This document shows positions 349 to 9,154 of a stretch of 9,981 bases of DNA, in pieces. The DNA lies in contig JAJYRV010000051.1 of the NCBI GenBank assembly GCA_021793935.1, forward strand, positions 1 to 9,981, written 5' to 3'. The stretch's first letter is position 1. Each line of letters starts with the position of its first letter. The notes below the pieces were generated by a model. The model did no database searches. It saw only the letters and a list, made by a program, of their open reading frames with translations, and was not told the origin of the DNA. Both the position numbers and the translations under genes were made by a program. The stretch is from Actinomycetes bacterium. Its GTDB lineage: Bacteria; Actinomycetota; Actinomycetes; Actinomycetales; Beutenbergiaceae.

Positions 349-361
349 CCTGTTCGTCGGG

Positions 362-398
362 AAAATAGCTGGGTACGGCCGGAACGAACTGTTACGGT
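362..398 (+). promoter_or_regulatory. Putative leaderless, WhiB7-like promoter of the erm operon
   Basis: A -10 box TACGGT (393-398) fits the actinobacterial TAnnnT consensus and ends 7 nt before the ATG at 406, so transcription could start on that ATG. The hexamer 17 bp upstream (370-375, TGGGTA) is a poor -35. An AT-rich AAAAT (362-366) sits 3 bp upstream of it, in otherwise GC-rich DNA. WhiB7-dependent promoters are known for a short AT-rich element just upstream of a weak -35, and WhiB7 regulons include erm genes. The same GTTACGG core occurs in the antiporter promoter near 4424. The WhiB7 assignment is inference. Confidence 0.5.
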
Positions 399-405
399 GT
401 CGCGC

Positions 406-468
406 ATGGGCACACTCATCACCGCGCTCGCACTCGCGCGCAAACTCACCTACCGCGACCGCGCATAG
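406..468 (+). CDS. Erm leader peptide (20 aa), putative translational attenuator
   Basis: ATG at 406 opens 20 codons ending in TAG at 466-468. The peptide begins MGTLITALALA and ends RKLTYRDRA. It is probably translated leaderlessly from the promoter just upstream. Short leader ORFs ahead of inducible erm genes encode nascent peptides that stall macrolide-bound ribosomes; known stall classes include IAVV/IFVI-like hydrophobic peptides and Arg-x-Arg (+x+) peptides. This one has both a hydrophobic ITALALA segment and a C-terminal RDR, but neither is an exact match to a characterised leader. Two of its codon stretches can pair downstream: 424-429 with the erm Shine-Dalgarno region (556-561), and the GCGCGC at 436-441 with 471-476. 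That is the arrangement expected of an attenuator. There is no SD upstream. Confidence 0.6.
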   Translation: MGTLITALALARKLTYRDRA

Positions 469-469
469 C

Positions 470-528
470 GGCGCGCTAGTGGGCCTGGGCCGGCGGCCGA
501 CCGCCAGCCCAGGCGATGTTGGCGCGCC
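470..528 (+). promoter_or_regulatory. Long GC-rich hairpin in the erm leader mRNA
   Basis: Nested inverted repeats form a long stem-loop between the leader ORF and erm. The outer arm GGCGCGC (470-476) pairs with 522-528. The central arm GCCTGGGC (483-490) pairs perfectly with 507-514. The inner arm GGCGG (492-496) pairs with CCGCC (501-505) around a four-base CCGA loop, with one mismatch between the last two stems. No T-run follows, so it is not a classical intrinsic terminator and is better read as an attenuator structure. The GCGCGC in the outer arm can alternatively pair with 436-441 inside the leader ORF, giving mutually exclusive folds. Confidence 0.6.
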
Positions 529-533
529 AGGAA

Positions 534-561
534 CAAGTCACCTTCCTTCGACTTGGAGCGC
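534..561 (+). promoter_or_regulatory. erm ribosome-binding region with overlapping stem
   Basis: GGAG at 555-558 lies 6 nt before the ATG at 565 and fixes that start codon rather than the TTG at 553. CAAGTC (534-539) is complementary to GACTTG (550-555), giving a 6-bp stem with a 10-nt loop whose 3' arm runs into the first G of the SD. GAGCGC (556-561) is also complementary to GCGCTC at 424-429 in the leader ORF. Either pairing would reduce ribosome access in the resting state. These pairings are read by eye and no folding energy was calculated. Confidence 0.45.
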
Positions 562-564
562 ACC

Positions 565-1347
565 ATGCCCCGCACTTTCCCGGGCGGACCACACGAACGT
601 GGCGAAAATCTGCTCACGCACCGCCCAACGCTCACCTACCTTGGTTCTCTCGCGGCCCGCACGAGCGGGTCGATCCTCGAGATCGGCACCGGAACGGGAC
701 TGCTCACCCGCCGACTCGCGGAACTGGGCCGACCCGTAACGACCATTGACATAGATCCCCGCAACGTGCGCCGCGCGCGCCGCCGCCTGCCGCACGTGGA
801 GGTACGCTGCGCCGATGCGCTGGAGTACCGCCTCGCCGCGGACACGATCATCGGTAACCTCCCGTTCCACCTGACCACGCCGATCCTTCGCCGGATACTT
901 CGCGAATCCGCGTGGGCCGAAGCGATCCTCCTGATCCAGTGGGAAGTCGCCCGCAAGCGCGCAGGCGTGGGTGGCGGAACGATGATGACCGGGCAGGCTG
1001 CGCCGTGGTTCACATTCGCGCTACACGGCCGGGTGCCGGCGCACCACTTTTCGCCGGTACCGTCAGTCGACGGCGGGATCCTGGGCATCTCCCGGCGCCC
1101 CGAACCGCTCATCCCCCTCGCTGAGCGGTCGGGGTATGAACGGTTCGTCCGGTCGGTATTCACTGCCCGGGGCCGAAACTTTCCACAACTCCTCGGCGGC
1201 GCCATGCGATTGCCGCAATCCGCGGCGAAGAAGGTCGTGGCAAGCGCGGGGATCCGATTCAGCCACCGCCCGCGGGATCTCACGCCGGAGCAGTGGTGCC
1301 GGTTATGGAGGGCAATGAGGGCGGCAGCCGATAAAGTGTCAACGTGA
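565..1347 (+). CDS. erm: Erm-family 23S rRNA (adenine-N6)-methyltransferase, ErmX-like
   Basis: The protein has 260 aa. Erm enzymes use SAM to mono- or dimethylate A2058 (E. coli numbering) of 23S rRNA, which blocks macrolide, lincosamide and streptogramin B binding. Visible motifs are the Erm N-terminal signature (GPHERGENLL, about residues 8-17), SAM motif I LEIGTGTG (38-45), motif II IDID (61-64), CADAL (82-86), and the catalytic motif IV GNLPF (97-101). These are followed by HLTTPILRRIL, an IQWEVARKRAGVGGGTMMT block and the FTARGR region. The QWEVARxRAGVG and MMT..PWFTF blocks are strongly reminiscent of ErmX from corynebacteria. A KsgA/RsmA 16S dimethyltransferase is the main alternative but fits the mid-region less well. 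The signature reads GENLL where most Erm have GQNFL. The gene follows a leader ORF and hairpins, and its stop overlaps the next start (GTGA), implying translational coupling. Confidence 0.88.
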   Translation: MPRTFPGGPHERGENLLTHRPTLTYLGSLAARTSGSILEIGTGTGLLTRRLAELGRPVTTIDIDPRNVRRARRRLPHVEVRCADALEYRLAADTIIGNLPFHLTTPILRRILRESAWAEAILLIQWEVARKRAGVGGGTMMTGQAAPWFTFALHGRVPAHHFSPVPSVDGGILGISRRPEPLIPLAERSGYERFVRSVFTARGRNFPQLLGGAMRLPQSAAKKVVASAGIRFSHRPRDLTPEQWCRLWRAMRAAADKVST

Positions 1348-2033
1348 ATGCACATGGCAGCGATCGGCGGACCATCGCGCAGCGGCAGACCCGGTGGGCG
1401 AAGCGCGCGGCGGACCTCCTCTTCCGCGCAAGGATCCGACCCAACTACATCTCCGTTGCCTCCGCCCTCATCGCGATCATCGGAAGTATCACGCTCGTCC
1501 TCAGCGGCCCGGCCTCCGGCACCACTCGGCCCGCGCTGCTGATCGTCACTGCCCTGTGCATCCCACTGCGGCTCCTGTTCAACATGCTCGATGGGATGCT
1601 CGCCGTAGAAAAAGGGTTGCACGAACCCACCGGCGACCTGTTCAACGAGATACCCGACCGGCTTGCTGACCTCGCACTCCTCGCCGCTGCCGGTTACGCC
1701 ACCGCGGGGCTGATGACTACCGAAGGTGGCACCGACCTCGGGGTGTTGCTCGGTTGGCTCGCCGCGTCGGGCGCCGTTGGCACGGCCTACGTTCGCACCC
1801 TCGGAGCAGCTCAAGGGGTGGGCAACTTCTTCAACGGTCCCACCGCCAAACCCGCGCGGATGTGGATCCTGTTCCTCGCGTGCATCGGTGCGATCTTCGA
1901 GCCGGAGAACCTCCGCGGAACCGCGTTGATGGTGGCTCTCACCCTCATCGCACTCGGATCCTTGGTGACGATAGTCAATCGCCTGAGACGGATCACCCGC
2001 GCGTTGCACACGGCCGGGCGGGAAGGGCGATGA
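1344..2033 (+). CDS. CDP-alcohol phosphatidyltransferase family membrane protein (YnbA-like)
   Basis: The protein has 229 aa and starts at a GTG overlapping the erm stop (GTGA). CDP-alcohol phosphatidyltransferases transfer a phosphatidyl group from CDP-diacylglycerol to an alcohol head group within the membrane. Several hydrophobic segments are visible (about 36-54, 62-79, 107-122, 131-147, 171-185, 193-210). The hallmark motif, normally DxxDGxxAR-x8-GxxxDxxxD, appears at residues 80-105 as N80..D83G84..A87V88, G97, N101, D105. The first and third acidic positions are Asn and the Arg is Val. From memory, E. coli YnbA also has Asn at both places, and the surrounding words (ALDGMLA, LNETGD) resemble NMLDGMLA and FNEIPD here, so YnbA-like is the best label. 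The substrate alcohol is unknown. The stop overlaps the next start by ATGA, consistent with one operon with the cytidylyltransferase that would supply CDP-diacylglycerol. Confidence 0.8.
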   Translation: MNAHGSDRRTIAQRQTRWAKRAADLLFRARIRPNYISVASALIAIIGSITLVLSGPASGTTRPALLIVTALCIPLRLLFNMLDGMLAVEKGLHEPTGDLFNEIPDRLADLALLAAAGYATAGLMTTEGGTDLGVLLGWLAASGAVGTAYVRTLGAAQGVGNFFNGPTAKPARMWILFLACIGAIFEPENLRGTALMVALTLIALGSLVTIVNRLRRITRALHTAGREGR

Positions 2034-3025
2034 TGAGCAGCGACATCGGTCTCCTCGACGCCACCGCCCTGCGACTCCTCGGCGGGGTCGGGGTGATCCT
2101 CATCCTCGCCACCGCGATCGCCTGGTTGCTCAGTTGGCGGCTCCGCGCGCCGAAACACGAGGAGCTACTCACAAACCTGCGCCAACGCATCTACGCATGG
2201 TGGGTCATGATCGCCGTTCTATTCGGCTCGCTTGCCATCGGAGAATTAGCCACGATCCTGCTGTTCGTCGTCCTCTCGTTGCTCGCGCTCCGAGAGTTCC
2301 TCACGCTCGCGCCCGTGCCGAGCCGGCGGGTGATGACGGCGGTGCTCATCTGCGCCGCCCTCATCCACTTCGCGCTCCTGATGAAACACTGGTACGGGTT
2401 CTACTCGGTGTTCATCCCGGTCTACGTGTTCTTGTTCCTCCCCGCCGCTGCCGCCCTCACTGGCCGCACCGCCGGGTTCCTCACCCGCACCGCGATCGCA
2501 CAATGGGCGCTCATGGTCTGCGTGTTCGCGCTCAGTTTCAACCCTGCCTTGCTCCACCTTCCCGTCGCGATCGAACAGGGCCGCGAGGTGGCCGACGGAG
2601 CCCCACTCGGCGCCGGGGGAGCAGCGGGCGGGAAACTGCTGCTATTCCTCGTCATCGTGGTCCAGGGCTCCGATGTGCTGCAGTACATCTGGGGGAAACT
2701 CTTCGGCCGCCACCCGATCGCTCCCTCGGTGAGCCCGAACAAGACCTGGGAAGGTTTCATCGGCGGGGTGCTCACCGCCACCGTGCTCGGCGGTGCGCTC
2801 GCCTGGCTCACCCCGTTCGCTCCGTGGCAGGCAGGGATGATGGCTCTCATTTCGTGCTTGCTCGGATTCGCCGGCGGCCTAGTCATGAGCTCCATTAAAC
2901 GCGACCGGGACATCAAGGATTTCGGCGCCCTGATACCCGGCCACGGGGGAGTGATGGATCGCCTCGATTCCCTCACCTTCGCAGCGCCGGTGTTCTTTCA
3001 CCTCGTACGGTATTTCTTCACCTGA
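2030..3025 (+). CDS. Phosphatidate cytidylyltransferase, CdsA family (YnbB-like)
   Basis: The protein has 331 aa and starts at ATG 2030, overlapping the previous stop (ATGA), with AAGGG at 2023-2027 as SD. CdsA enzymes make CDP-diacylglycerol from phosphatidic acid and CTP in the membrane. The C-terminal CdsA signature is clear: S288-x-K290-R291, K296-D297, PGHGG (303-307), D310-R311, D313. Upstream are SDVLQYIWGK and VSPNKTWEG, the CdsA cytidylyl-region motifs. Multiple membrane helices cover the N-terminal two thirds. Details such as RIYAWW near the N terminus and FAAPVFFHLVRY at the C terminus resemble E. coli YnbB more than housekeeping CdsA. The usual Asp of the GD pair seven residues before the signature Lys is Gly283 (codon 2876-2878). 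The pairing with a YnbA-like transferase suggests a dedicated lipid branch rather than general phospholipid synthesis. The 3' end overlaps the convergent MATE gene by 28 bp. Confidence 0.87.
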   Translation: MMSSDIGLLDATALRLLGGVGVILILATAIAWLLSWRLRAPKHEELLTNLRQRIYAWWVMIAVLFGSLAIGELATILLFVVLSLLALREFLTLAPVPSRRVMTAVLICAALIHFALLMKHWYGFYSVFIPVYVFLFLPAAAALTGRTAGFLTRTAIAQWALMVCVFALSFNPALLHLPVAIEQGREVADGAPLGAGGAAGGKLLLFLVIVVQGSDVLQYIWGKLFGRHPIAPSVSPNKTWEGFIGGVLTATVLGGALAWLTPFAPWQAGMMALISCLLGFAGGLVMSSIKRDRDIKDFGALIPGHGGVMDRLDSLTFAAPVFFHLVRYFFT

Positions 3026-4320
3026 ACCACCGCGCGCGAGAAGGTGAGATATTGACCCGCTGCGGCAAGCGCGTTCGCAGCTGCAATCGCCGCCCACACG
3101 CCTCTCATTCCGAATCTCGCGGCAGCGGGAAAACATGCGAGTGCCAGCGCGCCGTAGACGAGGGAGAAGATCATGAAGCTCACCGAGGAGCGCTTCAGTG
3201 CGGTGAGGCCGAACCCGAACACGGCCTGAACGCCGTCGAGAAGAATGGAAACGGCGACGATGGGAATAATCTGGGTGAGGATCGCGAGCACCTGCCCATC
3301 CCGGGTGAACACCGCGGCGATGGGCTGGCGGGCGGAAACGAGTATCGCCCCGAAGAGAACAAGGGCGACGGACGAGACGGCGATCGCCGCCCGCATCGCA
3401 CCGCGCCGAGTCGGGGTCGTTGCGCCCCCGGCGCTGAGAAGGGGGATGAGGGCCTGCCCGACGGCGACGGCGAAGGAGAACGTGATCCCGACCAACGCCA
3501 GCGCGACGTTGTGCGCCGCCCCCGCAGCCGCGCTGATGCGACTCGCAGCGAGCGTGGCGAGCCCGAGTACCCCGAACTTCACCAGCACGGTACCGGCCAT
3601 CGGCACCCCCACTCGGGCCTGGCGCGCGACCTCCCGCGTCACGGGCCGCCGCGCCCGTGAGGAGACGCCGGGGCGGCGGGCGAGTTCGGCGCGCAGCGCT
3701 CCGCCCGCGATGACCGCGCTGACCACCTGTGAACTCAATATCGCGGCGCCGGCTCCCGCCGCGCCAAAAGGAGGCAGGGGCCCCGCGCCGGGAACGAGGA
3801 GCAGAGCGAGGGCGGCGGAGGTTCCCGCGGCGGCGAGCCCGCTGTAGAGGACCGGCCGGGGCCGGTGCAGGCTCACGAGAGCGGAGATCGCCACGGCTGT
3901 CACTGCTGCGACGCCGACAGCAGCGGCGAGAAGCACAGGCAAGGCGCCCAACGAGGCGAGGACCTCGCGCGGAATCCCGATCCCGGCGGCAAGTACGGGA
4001 ACGCTGAGCACCGCGCCCGTACCCAACGCGCCAACGGCGAGCGCCAACCACAGCGCGTCGTGGAGGACGGCTCGGAGCCTGCCGGGATCCTCCCGCGCTT
4101 CGGCGATGAACGGCATCGAGCCGCGCACTGCACCAGTGATGGTCGCTACCGCTGGGGAGTACACGGCGCCCGCCGCGGCGAAGGCCGCGAGCGCAAGCGT
4201 CCGGTATCGCCCCAACGCGGCCGAACTCACCATCGCGCTAGCGGAGGCGGCGGCCATCGACAGATACAGGGGAACTGCCACCCCAAGGAGGCGGATGACA
4301 TGCCCGCCGACCTCAGCCAC
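2998..4320 (-). CDS. MATE-family efflux/flippase membrane protein
   Basis: The protein has 440 aa, starts at a GTG (complement of 4318-4320) with a G-rich stretch (GCGGGGG) just upstream, and ends at 2998. MATE transporters are 12-helix antiporters that export cationic drugs and dyes using Na+ or H+ gradients; the wider MOP superfamily also includes lipid-linked oligosaccharide flippases. The hydrophobicity pattern gives about twelve segments in two halves. The start of the second half, VGVPMAGTVLVKFGVLGLATLAASRISAAAGAAHN (residues about 238-272), is MATE-like (P...G, then ag.ig..a.AAH). The segment DGVQAVFGFGLTALKRSS resembles the MATE dG.q.v..G.lrg.g word. It is unusually rich in Ala and Val. 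A drug-efflux role would fit the neighbouring erm gene, but the substrate cannot be read from the sequence. It converges on the CdsA-like gene with a 28-bp overlap and no visible terminator. Confidence 0.75.
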   Translation of the reverse strand: MAEVGGHVIRLLGVAVPLYLSMAAASASAMVSSAALGRYRTLALAAFAAAGAVYSPAVATITGAVRGSMPFIAEAREDPGRLRAVLHDALWLALAVGALGTGAVLSVPVLAAGIGIPREVLASLGALPVLLAAAVGVAAVTAVAISALVSLHRPRPVLYSGLAAAGTSAALALLLVPGAGPLPPFGAAGAGAAILSSQVVSAVIAGGALRAELARRPGVSSRARRPVTREVARQARVGVPMAGTVLVKFGVLGLATLAASRISAAAGAAHNVALALVGITFSFAVAVGQALIPLLSAGGATTPTRRGAMRAAIAVSSVALVLFGAILVSARQPIAAVFTRDGQVLAILTQIIPIVAVSILLDGVQAVFGFGLTALKRSSVSFMIFSLVYGALALACFPAAARFGMRGVWAAIAAANALAAAGQYLTFSRAVVQVKKYRTR

Positions 4321-7964: not shown

Positions 7965-9077
7965 TTAGACCGGGTAGCGGAACGTCGCCGCTAACGCCGC
8001 GCCGTTCGGCATGTCGTCGGCGCGCACCGCGTACACCTTGCCATTGACGATGAGGGTTCGGCGCAGAATCTCGTCACCGACACCGTAGTTCGAGGCGTCG
8101 TCCTCCGAAGACTCGATCACTTCGGCGGTGGTCTCATCCACGTAACCGGGGATGCGCTGGTCGATATCGACCATGAGCGCATCGATCGCGTTGTACACCG
8201 CGGCGCGGGCGATGTGGGCGAGATCGGTCGACCCGAGGCCCTGGGCGGCTTTCGCCTGGAAGTCCTCGCGGATCTCTGCGATCTCCTGGGCGTACAGGTC
8301 GTCCAGGATCGGGCGAGCTCGTTCGGCAAGTTGCTCCGGGGAGAGGCTTTCAGGGTTACCCGAGATCGTCTCTTGGGCGAGGAACTTATACGAGTTTGTG
8401 CGCCGATAGGCACTGGCCAACGGCTCAGCGGAGGCGAGGATCAACGGGAGTTTCTCTTGGCGTAGCACCGGCAGGATCGCCTTGTTGATGGCGGCGGTGT
8501 ACTGCTGGGCGCGCAGATCGCCGTCCTCACTCCCTTTGCCGAAGGTCGCCCGGCCCGAGAGGTCGAGGTTGAGGTAGGAATCGATGTCGGCCGGCATGTC
8601 CGCCGGTTGCAGTTCCCGCGCGGGGGTATCTGCGGCAACCTTCACCAGCCGCACAGAGTTCTGCGCGAGCGCGAGCACGTACGCCGATTGCGGGAACGTG
8701 ATCGTGCGCAGGAGCGGCTTGATATAGAACCGGTCCGCGATGTCCACGGTCGCGGTGAAACGGTTGGGGAGGCGATAGGTTTCAAACATGCCCTCCGAGA
8801 TGAACACGGCCAGCGAGTTCGACTGGTACTGCCAGAACAAAGCATCCTGAAGGAGGGTCTCCACCGACTCCTTCACCCGCTCAAGCATTTCCTTACCGAC
8901 CTGGGCGGACTCCAGCTGACTGAGCACCTCACGCAACTGGTTCTTCAACTCGATCCGTGCCCGTTCCCCATCTTCAGGAAGCGGCCCTGCGGGAGTGTAA
9001 ATGGAAACGCAATTGGGTTCGCGAACCGCGGCCAAAAGGTCGATATCACCACGGCTTGGGATGTCTTTGTGGGCCAT
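7965..9077 (-). CDS. baeRF-family (archaeo-eukaryotic release factor 1-like) protein
   Basis: The protein has 370 aa. The start is the ATG at 9075-9077, preceded by AAGGAG at good spacing; an in-frame upstream extension to 9116 has no SD. The N terminus (CVSIYTPAGPLPEDGERARIELKNQLREV) looks like the Vxx(Y/S)lpt...r..i.lkNll..a opening of the bacterial eRF1-related (baeRF) families. A middle region, FYIKPLLRTITFPQSAYVLALAQNSVRLVKV, is the typical second-domain strand pattern. A C-terminal L7Ae/pelota-like region includes QEKLPLILASAEPLASAYRRTNSYKFLAQETISGNPESLSP. No GGQ loop is visible where peptidyl-tRNA hydrolases of the eRF1 group carry one, so release activity cannot be assumed. The family has been proposed to act on ribosomes or nucleic acid under stress, but its function is not established. 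It is monocistronic with its own strong terminator. Confidence 0.7.
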   Translation of the reverse strand: MAHKDIPSRGDIDLLAAVREPNCVSIYTPAGPLPEDGERARIELKNQLREVLSQLESAQVGKEMLERVKESVETLLQDALFWQYQSNSLAVFISEGMFETYRLPNRFTATVDIADRFYIKPLLRTITFPQSAYVLALAQNSVRLVKVAADTPARELQPADMPADIDSYLNLDLSGRATFGKGSEDGDLRAQQYTAAINKAILPVLRQEKLPLILASAEPLASAYRRTNSYKFLAQETISGNPESLSPEQLAERARPILDDLYAQEIAEIREDFQAKAAQGLGSTDLAHIARAAVYNAIDALMVDIDQRIPGYVDETTAEVIESSEDDASNYGVGDEILRRTLIVNGKVYAVRADDMPNGAALAATFRYPV

Positions 9078-9154
9078 GAACGATTCTCCTTCACGATCAG
9101 TTCCAACCGCATCCAACGGAGTCGTTCCCCGCCGGTTACCTGCGGTGGACTGCC

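What the first reader, a model, noticed from the sequence alone, without database searches (positions are those of the whole stretch)
362..564. Complete erm attenuator: leaderless leader peptide, WhiB7-like promoter and competing RNA stems
Seen: AAAAT 3 bp upstream of a weak -35, TACGGT placed for a +1 on the ATG at 406, a 20-codon leader ORF, a long nested hairpin (470-528), and two alternative pairings that involve the erm SD (534-539 with 550-555; 424-429 with 556-561). Leader codons at 436-441 can also pair with 471-476 in competition with 522-528. Known: inducible erm genes use ribosome stalling on a leader peptide to open the SD, and actinobacterial erm genes can be in the WhiB7 regulon. 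Inferred: macrolide-bound ribosomes stall in this leader and unmask erm. The peptide (ITALALA, then RDR near the end) matches no leader I can name.
Basis: partly seen in the sequence, partly recalled or inferred. Interest (0 to 1): 0.8.

Follow-up and report, generated by a model that had tools for sequence, protein, structure and literature searches.

The report
Drug-sensing leader upstream of erm
A tiny gene in front of an antibiotic-resistance gene looks like a built-in drug sensor: a ribosome jammed by a macrolide on its last codons is predicted to refold the RNA so that the resistance enzyme is made, and similar sensors sit in front of most of the related resistance genes examined.

Summary
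At 361-564 lie a WhiB7-type promoter (one match in 9981 bases, 0.01 expected), an ATG 7 nt after its -10 box (so probably leaderless), a 20-codon ORF ending Arg-Asp-Arg-Ala, nested hairpins and a maskable erm ribosome site. Of 103 Erm loci (window included), 96 carry such a leaderless short ORF with Arg/Lys-X-Arg/Lys near its end (controls 0-2). In 28 relatives the RNA has two mutually exclusive, covarying foldings, one hiding the ribosome site. Folding of the window opens the site only when the leader's end is covered and the bases after its stop codon are not, about where a ribosome stalled on RDR would stand. A leader-end signature occurs in 53 of 55 erm-bearing and 0 of 143 other genomes of one genus. 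The WhiB7-type box tracks WhiB7 (26 of 29 genomes with the box, 1 of 51 without).

Verdict: a macrolide-responsive translational attenuator, here joined to a WhiB7-type promoter; the window's switch is a short version lacking its relatives' middle segments. Stalling, start site and WhiB7 dependence are inferred. New variant of a known kind.

The parts
361..366 (+). WhiB7/WblC-type box GAAAAT
   Evidence: matches GAAAWY 3 nt upstream of the -35 (consensus: PMC7157823, passages); the full promoter pattern occurs once in the window
370..375 (+). weak -35 element TGGGTA
   Evidence: fits the TKG core of the published TKGMNN; the M position is not matched
393..398 (+). -10 element TACGGT, 7 nt before the leader ATG
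   Evidence: in 96 loci the spacing is 7 nt in 78, 6 in 15, 8 in 3 (the script tried 7 first)
406..468 (+). probably leaderless leader ORF, 20 codons, MGTLITALALARKLTYRDRA
   Evidence: nearest relatives mostly read MGx[LI]...R[DE]RRA
454..462 (+). Arg-Asp-Arg codons: predicted arrest site (Asp18 in P site, Arg19 in A site) and segment 0 of the RNA switch
   Evidence: pairs with 468-475 in the fold of 406-600 and in 7.9 of 8 expected pairs when the leader end is uncovered
468..479 (+). segment 1: pairs with segment 0 (468-475) or with segment 2 (470-479)
   Evidence: post-stop GGCGCG kept in most of the 28 aligned relatives
483..514 (+). GC-rich inner hairpin between segments 1 and 2
   Evidence: no counterpart seen in the alignment of relatives
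519..528 (+). segment 2: pairs with segment 1 (predicted on) or, by 520-527, with 558-565 over the erm start (predicted off)
534..555 (+). small hairpin 534-539 with 550-555 next to the SD
555..558 (+). erm Shine-Dalgarno GGAG
   Evidence: opening cost 3.3-3.8 kcal/mol when the first free base is 464-471 and 6.1-7.5 when it is 474-479 (3' ends 585 and 600)
565..1347 (+). erm-type 23S rRNA adenine methyltransferase gene, 260 aa
   Evidence: NCBIfam Erm46 252.9 bits, Erm broad equivalog 210.6 (cut-off 212), KsgA 114 (cut-off 171); among actinobacterial Erm proteins in the tree; best solved structure Erm(38), E 2.8e-56

Best explanation
It is a macrolide-responsive translational attenuator of erm, on a probably leaderless transcript from a WhiB7-type promoter. 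Without drug, the RDR codons (segment 0) pair with the bases after the stop codon (segment 1); segment 2 is then free and closes over the erm start (520-527 with 558-565), so erm is off; a ribosome standing at the stop codon covers segment 1 and gives the same result. With a macrolide or ketolide the ribosome halts with Asp18 in the P site and Arg19 in the A site, covers segment 0 but little of segment 1, segments 1 and 2 pair (470-479 with 519-528), and the ribosome site opens. In relatives the same first step is thought to feed a further relay (3:4, then 4:5 in place of the ribosome-site hairpin 5:6). WhiB7, itself induced by ribosome inhibitors, would raise transcription of the same mRNA, so erm would need two signs of the drug. 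Shown by sequence: promoter match, leader, motif, conservation, covarying alternatives. Inferred: start site, stalling, direction of the switch, WhiB7 dependence.
For: Leader in 96 of 103 loci, controls 0-2 (the -10 box and the R-X-R motif are part of the search rule, hence the controls). In 26 deduplicated 21-codon leaders codon 2 is always Gly and codon 4 Leu or Ile with free third bases (these were chosen for ending RDR or RER, so constancy of codons 17-19 is by choice). Leader-end signature in 53 of 55 erm-bearing and 0 of 143 other genomes, each 118-180 bases upstream of the erm match (distances worked out by hand). Covariation in 28 relatives: structure 1:2 plus 4:5 has 20 cells changed on both sides (shuffled mean 4.1, 0/500 as high), structure 0:1 plus 3:4 plus 5:6 has 15 (mean 4.4, 0/500); columns 144 and 145 of segment 4 covary with both partners. 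Folding of 45 relatives: trapping of the anti-SD peaks at 8.6 kcal/mol when the first free base is at the stop codon, about 6.5-6.6 for edges 24 bases before or 10 after; statistic 1.95 against 0.0-0.73 in 12 shuffled sets. Window: leader end uncovered gives 0:1 (7.9 expected pairs) with 2:6 (3.9-7.3); edge at 464-468 gives 1:2 (9.2-9.7) with 2:6 near 0; edge at 474 or beyond gives 2:6 (6.6-7.5); 0 of 200 shuffles show as deep a dip in SD cost. WhiB7: promoter match; 26 of 29 genomes with the box encode WhiB7, 1 of 51 without (Fisher p 1.2e-16).
Against: No experiment. Plain equilibrium SD accessibility does not show opening on stalling for the set: of 95 loci 17 drop by more than 1 kcal/mol and 24 rise (mean 6.1 free, 6.3 stalled); truncation of 46 loci gives only a small dip (6.5 against 6.7-6.9 before and 7.1 after). 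The clear family signal needs the anti-SD to be judged before the SD is made. In the window with a full footprint the dip on codon 18 (5.7; 7.4 and 7.1 beside it, 7.4 with no ribosome) is only local: ribosomes on codons 4-5 (3.6, 3.4) or 11-13 (5.1-4.5) lower the cost more. At a toeprint edge of 15-16 nt (first free base 472-473) segments 1:2 hold with 3' end 585 but are lost with 600. With 3' end 630 the SD cost at 464-471 (4.5-4.7) is below that at 474-479 (6.6-6.8) but not below that of earlier edges (3.9-5.7 at 440-461); a second low lies at 488-493. The dip statistic was chosen after seeing the profile. Helices 0:1, 1:2 and 5:6 hardly vary in relatives, and two of the five covariation measures do not exceed shuffles. 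RNAalifold puts 1:2 together with 5:6. The window lacks segments 3-4-5. WhiB7 and box are shared by kin: only 3 well-supported independent comparisons exist, 2.1 agree on average, 0 disagree, not significant.
Confidence: 0.7

Rival explanations
1. Transcription attenuation: the strong hairpin 470-528 ends transcription unless a ribosome stalls, as at whiB7 and partly at Bacillus yxjB/tlrB.
For: Strong GC-rich hairpin; whiB7 leaders and yxjB use terminators (PMC10727445 and PMC6851288, passages).
Against: No terminator-like site found in 300-700 and no U tract after 528; the elements kept in relatives end in an SD-masking hairpin. Rho-dependent or U-less termination is not excluded.
Confidence: 0.15
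2. WhiB7 alone sets expression; in this window the leader is a passenger, decayed from the relatives' attenuator (one codon shorter, segments 3-4-5 missing).
For: No G[TC]GCTCC anti-SD between leader and erm; leader ends RDRA, not RDRRA; erm(37) and erm(41) are WhiB7-regulon genes (PMC4128351, PMC10727445, passages); a ribosome on early codons would also open the SD.
Against: Leader intact with 7-nt -10 spacing, RDR in place, a window-specific switch whose dip no shuffle of 200 matches.
Confidence: 0.12
3. The leader senses arginine starvation or slow translation in general rather than macrolides.
For: Three of its 20 codons are Arg, two of them in the RDR triplet; whiB7 itself also answers to amino-acid starvation (PMC12121999, passages).
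Against: What is kept in relatives is R-X-R with X varying (D, E, H, P, I, L, M), as in Arg/Lys-X-Arg/Lys arrest motifs; the gene controlled is erm.
Confidence: 0.08

Closest known systems
ErmDL-type and Erm(X)-type leaders (Arg/Lys-X-Arg/Lys class) of inducible erm genes
   Same: Short leader, +X+ arrest motif, erm downstream; X in the P site and Arg in the A site at the stall (PMC8298421, passages). The Erm(X) record fetched here carries MLISGTAFLRLRTNR with a TATAAT box 7 nt before its ATG; that this is the known Erm(X) leader is recalled.
   Different: RDR near the stop codon (codons 17-19) instead of RLR at codons 6-8 of ErmDL; different RNA switch; WhiB7-type promoter in the window.
Bacillus subtilis yxjB/tlrB leader (RYR motif)
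   Same: R-X-R at the end of a short leader, SD-masking hairpin, rRNA methyltransferase downstream (PMC6851288, passages).
   Different: Leader has its own SD, a terminator and RNA polymerase pausing; other enzyme (RlmAII).
whiB7/wblC uORF, and WhiB7-regulon genes erm(37), erm(41), Streptomyces SCO6089
   Same: Promoter consensus and role in the response to ribosome drugs (PMC7157823, PMC10727445, PMC4128351, passages).
   Different: There the uORF controls whiB7 itself; PMC4128351 calls erm(37) a notable exception to uORF control of erm genes. Here both devices lie on one erm.
Staphylococcal ErmC leader
   Same: Ladder of alternative stems in which stalling frees the SD (recalled).
   Different: Other arrest sequence, SD-led leader, no WhiB7 (recalled).

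Membership tests
Inducible erm attenuators | Short leader ORF upstream of erm, conserved in relatives | tested here: met
   96 of 103 loci against 0-2 in controls; codon-position pattern at codons 2 and 4
Inducible erm attenuators | Known drug-arrest motif in the leader | tested here: met
   RDR = Arg-X-Arg at codons 17-19; motif defined in PMC8298421 and PMC6851288 (passages)
Inducible erm attenuators | Two exclusive RNA folds, one masking the SD | tested here: met
   by covariation in relatives and by folding of the window; computed, not probed
Inducible erm attenuators | Drug-dependent ribosome stall and induction | not testable with these tools
   needs toeprinting and reporters
Erm methyltransferases | Score over the NCBIfam broad Erm cut-off | tested here: not met
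   210.6 bits against 212
Erm methyltransferases | Groups with Erm rather than KsgA | tested here: met
   tree of 112 rows with one KsgA as outgroup; KsgA model 114 bits against 171
WhiB7/WblC-activated promoters | GAAAWY, 3 nt, TKGMNN, 16-19 nt, TANNNT | tested here: met
   matches except for the M of TKGMNN
WhiB7/WblC-activated promoters | WhiB7 present in the same genome | not testable with these tools
   no genome is held for the window; only relatives were tested
Leaderless mRNAs | Start codon at the transcript's 5' end | tested here: inconclusive
   -10 to ATG spacing of 7 nt fits; no start-site mapping
RDRRA-type attenuator defined here | Leader MGx[LI]...R[DE]R with pairings 0:1 and 1:2 | tested here: met
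RDRRA-type attenuator defined here | Segments 3, 4 and 5 with a G[TC]GCTCC anti-SD | tested here: not met
   no such anti-SD between 469 and 564

The most novel reading that the evidence does not exclude
A dedicated actinobacterial class of erm control in which one drug is sensed twice on one mRNA: a WhiB7-type promoter starts a leaderless transcript, and the codons of the arrest motif are themselves the first strand of a domino RNA switch, so that a stall on that triplet, and neither free passage nor termination, turns erm on. The promoter box comes and goes with WhiB7 while the leader switch persists.
Probability: 0.45. Interest if true: 0.72.

Novelty: new variant of a known kind. Interest (0 to 1): 0.6.

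Why it matters
If true, many chromosomal and several plasmid-borne actinobacterial erm genes share a drug-sensing leader (it was not among the annotated features listed for the plasmid records fetched), with a predicted stall codon, a predicted switch and a clear test. It would also show a WhiB7 promoter and a stalling leader on one gene, two devices that PMC4128351 sets against each other, and the genomes with and without WhiB7 offer a natural comparison of what each layer adds.

Tried and rejected
First leader scans read minus-strand loci the wrong way round, so about half seemed to lack a leader; fixed, controls repeated. One search folded the wrong stretch (coding DNA of L105) and is not used. 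Plain equilibrium tests of SD opening did not support the switch for the family and are told above; the test of the anti-SD before the SD is made did, and was devised after that failure. Pairing of leader codons 7-8 with the SD as the general device was dropped: relatives have their own anti-SD next to the SD. My first register for that hairpin was one base off (33% paired); corrected. Terminator: none found. Rfam: no match to the leader (one weak unrelated hit at 2327-2383).

Rows dropped. Before the 103-locus count: L002 and L004-L006 (distant or not Erm), L003, L033, L039, L061, L062, L080, L083 (duplicates), and L081 by mistake; checked, L081 shows no such leader, so with it the count is 96 of 104. 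The 103 include near-identical loci; 82 or 79 promoters remained after deduplication. The 28 aligned relatives are those left of 44 (leader 185-220 nt before erm, R[DE]R[RSC]) after removing near-duplicates. The fold profile used 45 of 46 loci (L096 has no such anti-SD). For loci, the genome search gave at most 30 per search: 30 of 55 erm genomes. WhiB7 was sought in 80 of the 91 genomes I first listed (11 Microbacterium-like ones left out because the tool takes 80). The AT box was scored loosely (AAAW, AATW, ATAA, ATAT starting 33-27 bases before the -10); the strict promoter pattern fits only 7 of 96. One further WhiB (L129) matched a loose AT-hook pattern and was left out of the WhiB7 profile.

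Literature: searches in an open-access library showed no paper describing this leader class; I saw listings and, for eight papers, passages. Subscription papers, among them Ramu 2009 on leader classes (recalled; seen only in a reference list), were not seen. DNA of the closest relatives of the window's protein (P0002, 88%; P0003, 76%) was not reached.

Full report
What is in the sequence. GAAAAT (361-366), three bases, TGGGTA (370-375), 17 bases and TACGGT (393-398) fit the published consensus of WblC/WhiB7-activated promoters except for one -35 position; such promoters mostly start transcription 7 or 8 bases after the -10 (PMC7157823, passages). The pattern occurs once in the window; 0.01 are expected. 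The leader ATG (406) lies where the transcript should begin. The ORF reads MGTLITALALARKLTYRDRA and stops at 468; erm starts at 565 with GGAG at 555-558.

The gene. The downstream protein is Erm-like: 252.9 bits to the Erm(46) model, 210.6 to the broad Erm model (1.4 bits short of its cut-off), 114 to KsgA (cut-off 171). In a quick tree of 112 rows it groups with the 88% and 76% relatives (100*) inside a starred clade of 70 actinobacterial Erm rows (98*), with one KsgA as a long-branched outgroup. The 88% relative is listed as a Beutenbergiaceae MAG (search listing), so the window may come from that neighbourhood; no genome is held for it.

Is the leader real? I gathered Erm loci from genomes and plasmids. 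With orientation corrected, 96 of 103 loci (window and near-duplicates included) carry a 9-32 codon ORF upstream with Arg/Lys-X-Arg/Lys in its last nine residues and TANNNT 5-9 bases before its start; the spacing is 7 in 78, 6 in 15 and 8 in 3 (7 was tried first). The same scan finds 2 of 103 on the opposite strand, 1 of 102 downstream, and 0-2 of 103 in each of 20 shuffles. Of the seven misses, L037 and L038 have an MGTL...RDRRA ORF without the box, L019 an early stop, and L032, L067, L075 and L086 none found. By a looser rule, named genes Erm(36), Erm(50), Erm(51), Erm(55) and Erm(X) also show such leaders (5 of 7 records; the two Erm(46) records do not). In 26 deduplicated 21-codon leaders (picked for ending RDR or RER, so their ends are alike by choice), Gly2 and [LI]4 are constant with free third bases, the middle is loose, and amino-acid-changing differences in codons 2-16 run at 0.70 of the neutral rate, a mild figure. 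A 27-base leader-end signature (two mismatches allowed) occurs in 53 of 198 genomes of one genus; these 53 are among the 55 with erm at E 1e-60 or better, none of the 143 others has it, and each copy lies 118-180 bases upstream of the erm match on its strand (by hand); the reversed control pattern hits once.

The RNA of relatives. In 28 deduplicated relatives (alignment A3) there is a ladder: leader end CGCGCC (0), post-stop GGCGCG (1), GCGCGCC (2), CCGAG (3), GCACCTCGG (4), CCGAGGTGCTCC (5) and GGAGCGC over the SD (6). Helices 0:1, 1:2, 3:4, 4:5 and 5:6 pair in 95.0-98.5% of cells; slid registers pair in 32-53%. The 1:2 plus 4:5 structure has 20 cells changed on both sides (shuffled mean 4.1, 0/500), the 0:1 plus 3:4 plus 5:6 structure 15 (mean 4.4, 0/500). 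The numbers of pairs with such changes (19/500 and 120/500) and of further pair types (171/500 and 349/500) stand out less or not at all, and kinship can inflate all these counts. The strength is in 3:4 and 4:5: columns 144 and 145 change together with 127 and 126 and also with 207 and 206. Helices 0:1, 1:2 and 5:6 hardly vary, so covariation says little about them. RNAalifold picks 1:2, part of 3:4 and 5:6, with three other short helices, so assigning 1:2 to the on state is my inference.

How relatives would switch. A ribosome halted with codon 18 in the P site covers 0 and leaves most of 1 free. The cost of opening the anti-SD, computed before the SD is transcribed, peaks (8.6 kcal/mol) when the first free base is at the stop codon and is lower for an edge 24 bases earlier (6.6) or 10 later, as at termination (6.5); over 45 relatives the contrast is 1.95 against 0.0-0.73 in 12 shuffled sets. 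This fits: stall, then segment 4 takes segment 5, then the SD is free. It is not seen in equilibrium calculations on the finished RNA, so the model needs folding during transcription.

The window's version. It keeps 0, 1, 2 and the SD but has no G[TC]GCTCC anti-SD and so no 3-4-5 module; 96 bases lie between stop and erm. Pair probabilities: in the bare 406-600 RNA, segment 0 pairs with 1, leader codons 11-12 with segment 2 and codons 7-8 with the SD. With the ribosome's edge at 440-446, 0:1 holds 7.9 expected pairs and segment 2 closes over the SD (3.9-7.3). At 456-460 1:2 has formed but 461-464 pair with the SD region (2.4-4.0). At 464-468 1:2 holds 9.2-9.7 pairs and nothing but weak downstream pairing masks the SD. 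From 474 on, 2:6 holds 6.6-7.5. The turning point is 472-473: with 3' end 600 the switch is already off, with 585 still on, with 630 in between. SD opening costs 3.3-3.8 kcal/mol at 464-471 and 6.1-7.5 at 474-479 (3' ends 585 and 600), 4.5-4.7 against 6.6-6.8 with 630, where earlier edges are no higher (3.9-5.7). With a full footprint and the leader's 5' part free, the cost dips on codon 18 (5.7, against 7.4 and 7.1 beside it), but codons 4-5 (3.6, 3.4) and 11-13 lie lower (done before the model). None of 200 shuffles gives as deep a dip for the truncated RNA (positions chosen after seeing the profile).

WhiB7. In 79 deduplicated promoters, 28 of 35 (overlapping) AAAW tetramers start 34-30 bases before the -10 box. 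WhiB7 orthologues, modelled on five WhiB proteins with a C-terminal AT-hook, one from each of five genomes, separate cleanly by score in 80 genomes (115 bits or more against 55 or less): 26 of 29 genomes with the box have WhiB7, 1 of 51 without (Fisher p 1.2e-16). The three exceptions (G294, G021, G367) carry the RLRSR-type leader with ATATT; the one WhiB7 genome scored as boxless (G949) has TTTAAAT just outside my scoring window. Kinship weakens this: both traits change 11 times on the Erm tree, but only 3 independent comparisons rest on firm branches. The strict promoter pattern fits 7 of 96 loci, the window among them.

Place among known systems. Arg/Lys-X-Arg/Lys leaders, SD masking and P-site/A-site positions are known; telithromycin depends on the motif, erythromycin less so (PMC8298421 and PMC6851288, passages). 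WhiB7 control of erm genes is known (PMC10727445, PMC7157823, passages). The RDR-type leader class, its relay of stems, its apparent leaderless start and the union with a WhiB7-type promoter were not found in the searches listed in Tried and rejected. I file it as a new variant of a known kind.

Noticed in passing
1344-2033 and 2030-3025 (+): The erm stop overlaps the start of a gene resembling phosphatidylinositol phosphate synthases (NCBIfam, below cut-off), followed by a cytidylyltransferase-family (CTP_transf_1) gene, so erm may head a lipid operon. No similar genes lie within the fetched flanks (mostly about 1.5 kb each side) of the other 102 Erm loci.
   Followed up: partly
7965-9116 (-): Relative of baeRF-type ribosome hibernation factors (Pfam baeRF families; NCBIfam AOC03_06830 family below cut-off), another ribosome-related gene in the window.
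   Followed up: no
2998-4320 (-): MATE-type efflux transporter close to erm (NCBIfam below cut-off, Pfam MatE above).
   Followed up: no
L145, L147-L150: Named Erm(36), Erm(55), Erm(X), Erm(51) and Erm(50) leaders also have TANNNT 6-7 bases before the start, so leaderless leaders may be common in actinobacterial erm genes.
   Followed up: partly
L045-L049, L053, L055-L060: A subgroup with leaders MGT[LF]N...R[DH]R has 270-324 bases between leader start and erm, about 100 more than most others; the extra RNA is unexplained.
   Followed up: no
rows G432 and G427: Erm matches with one internal stop codon.
   Followed up: no
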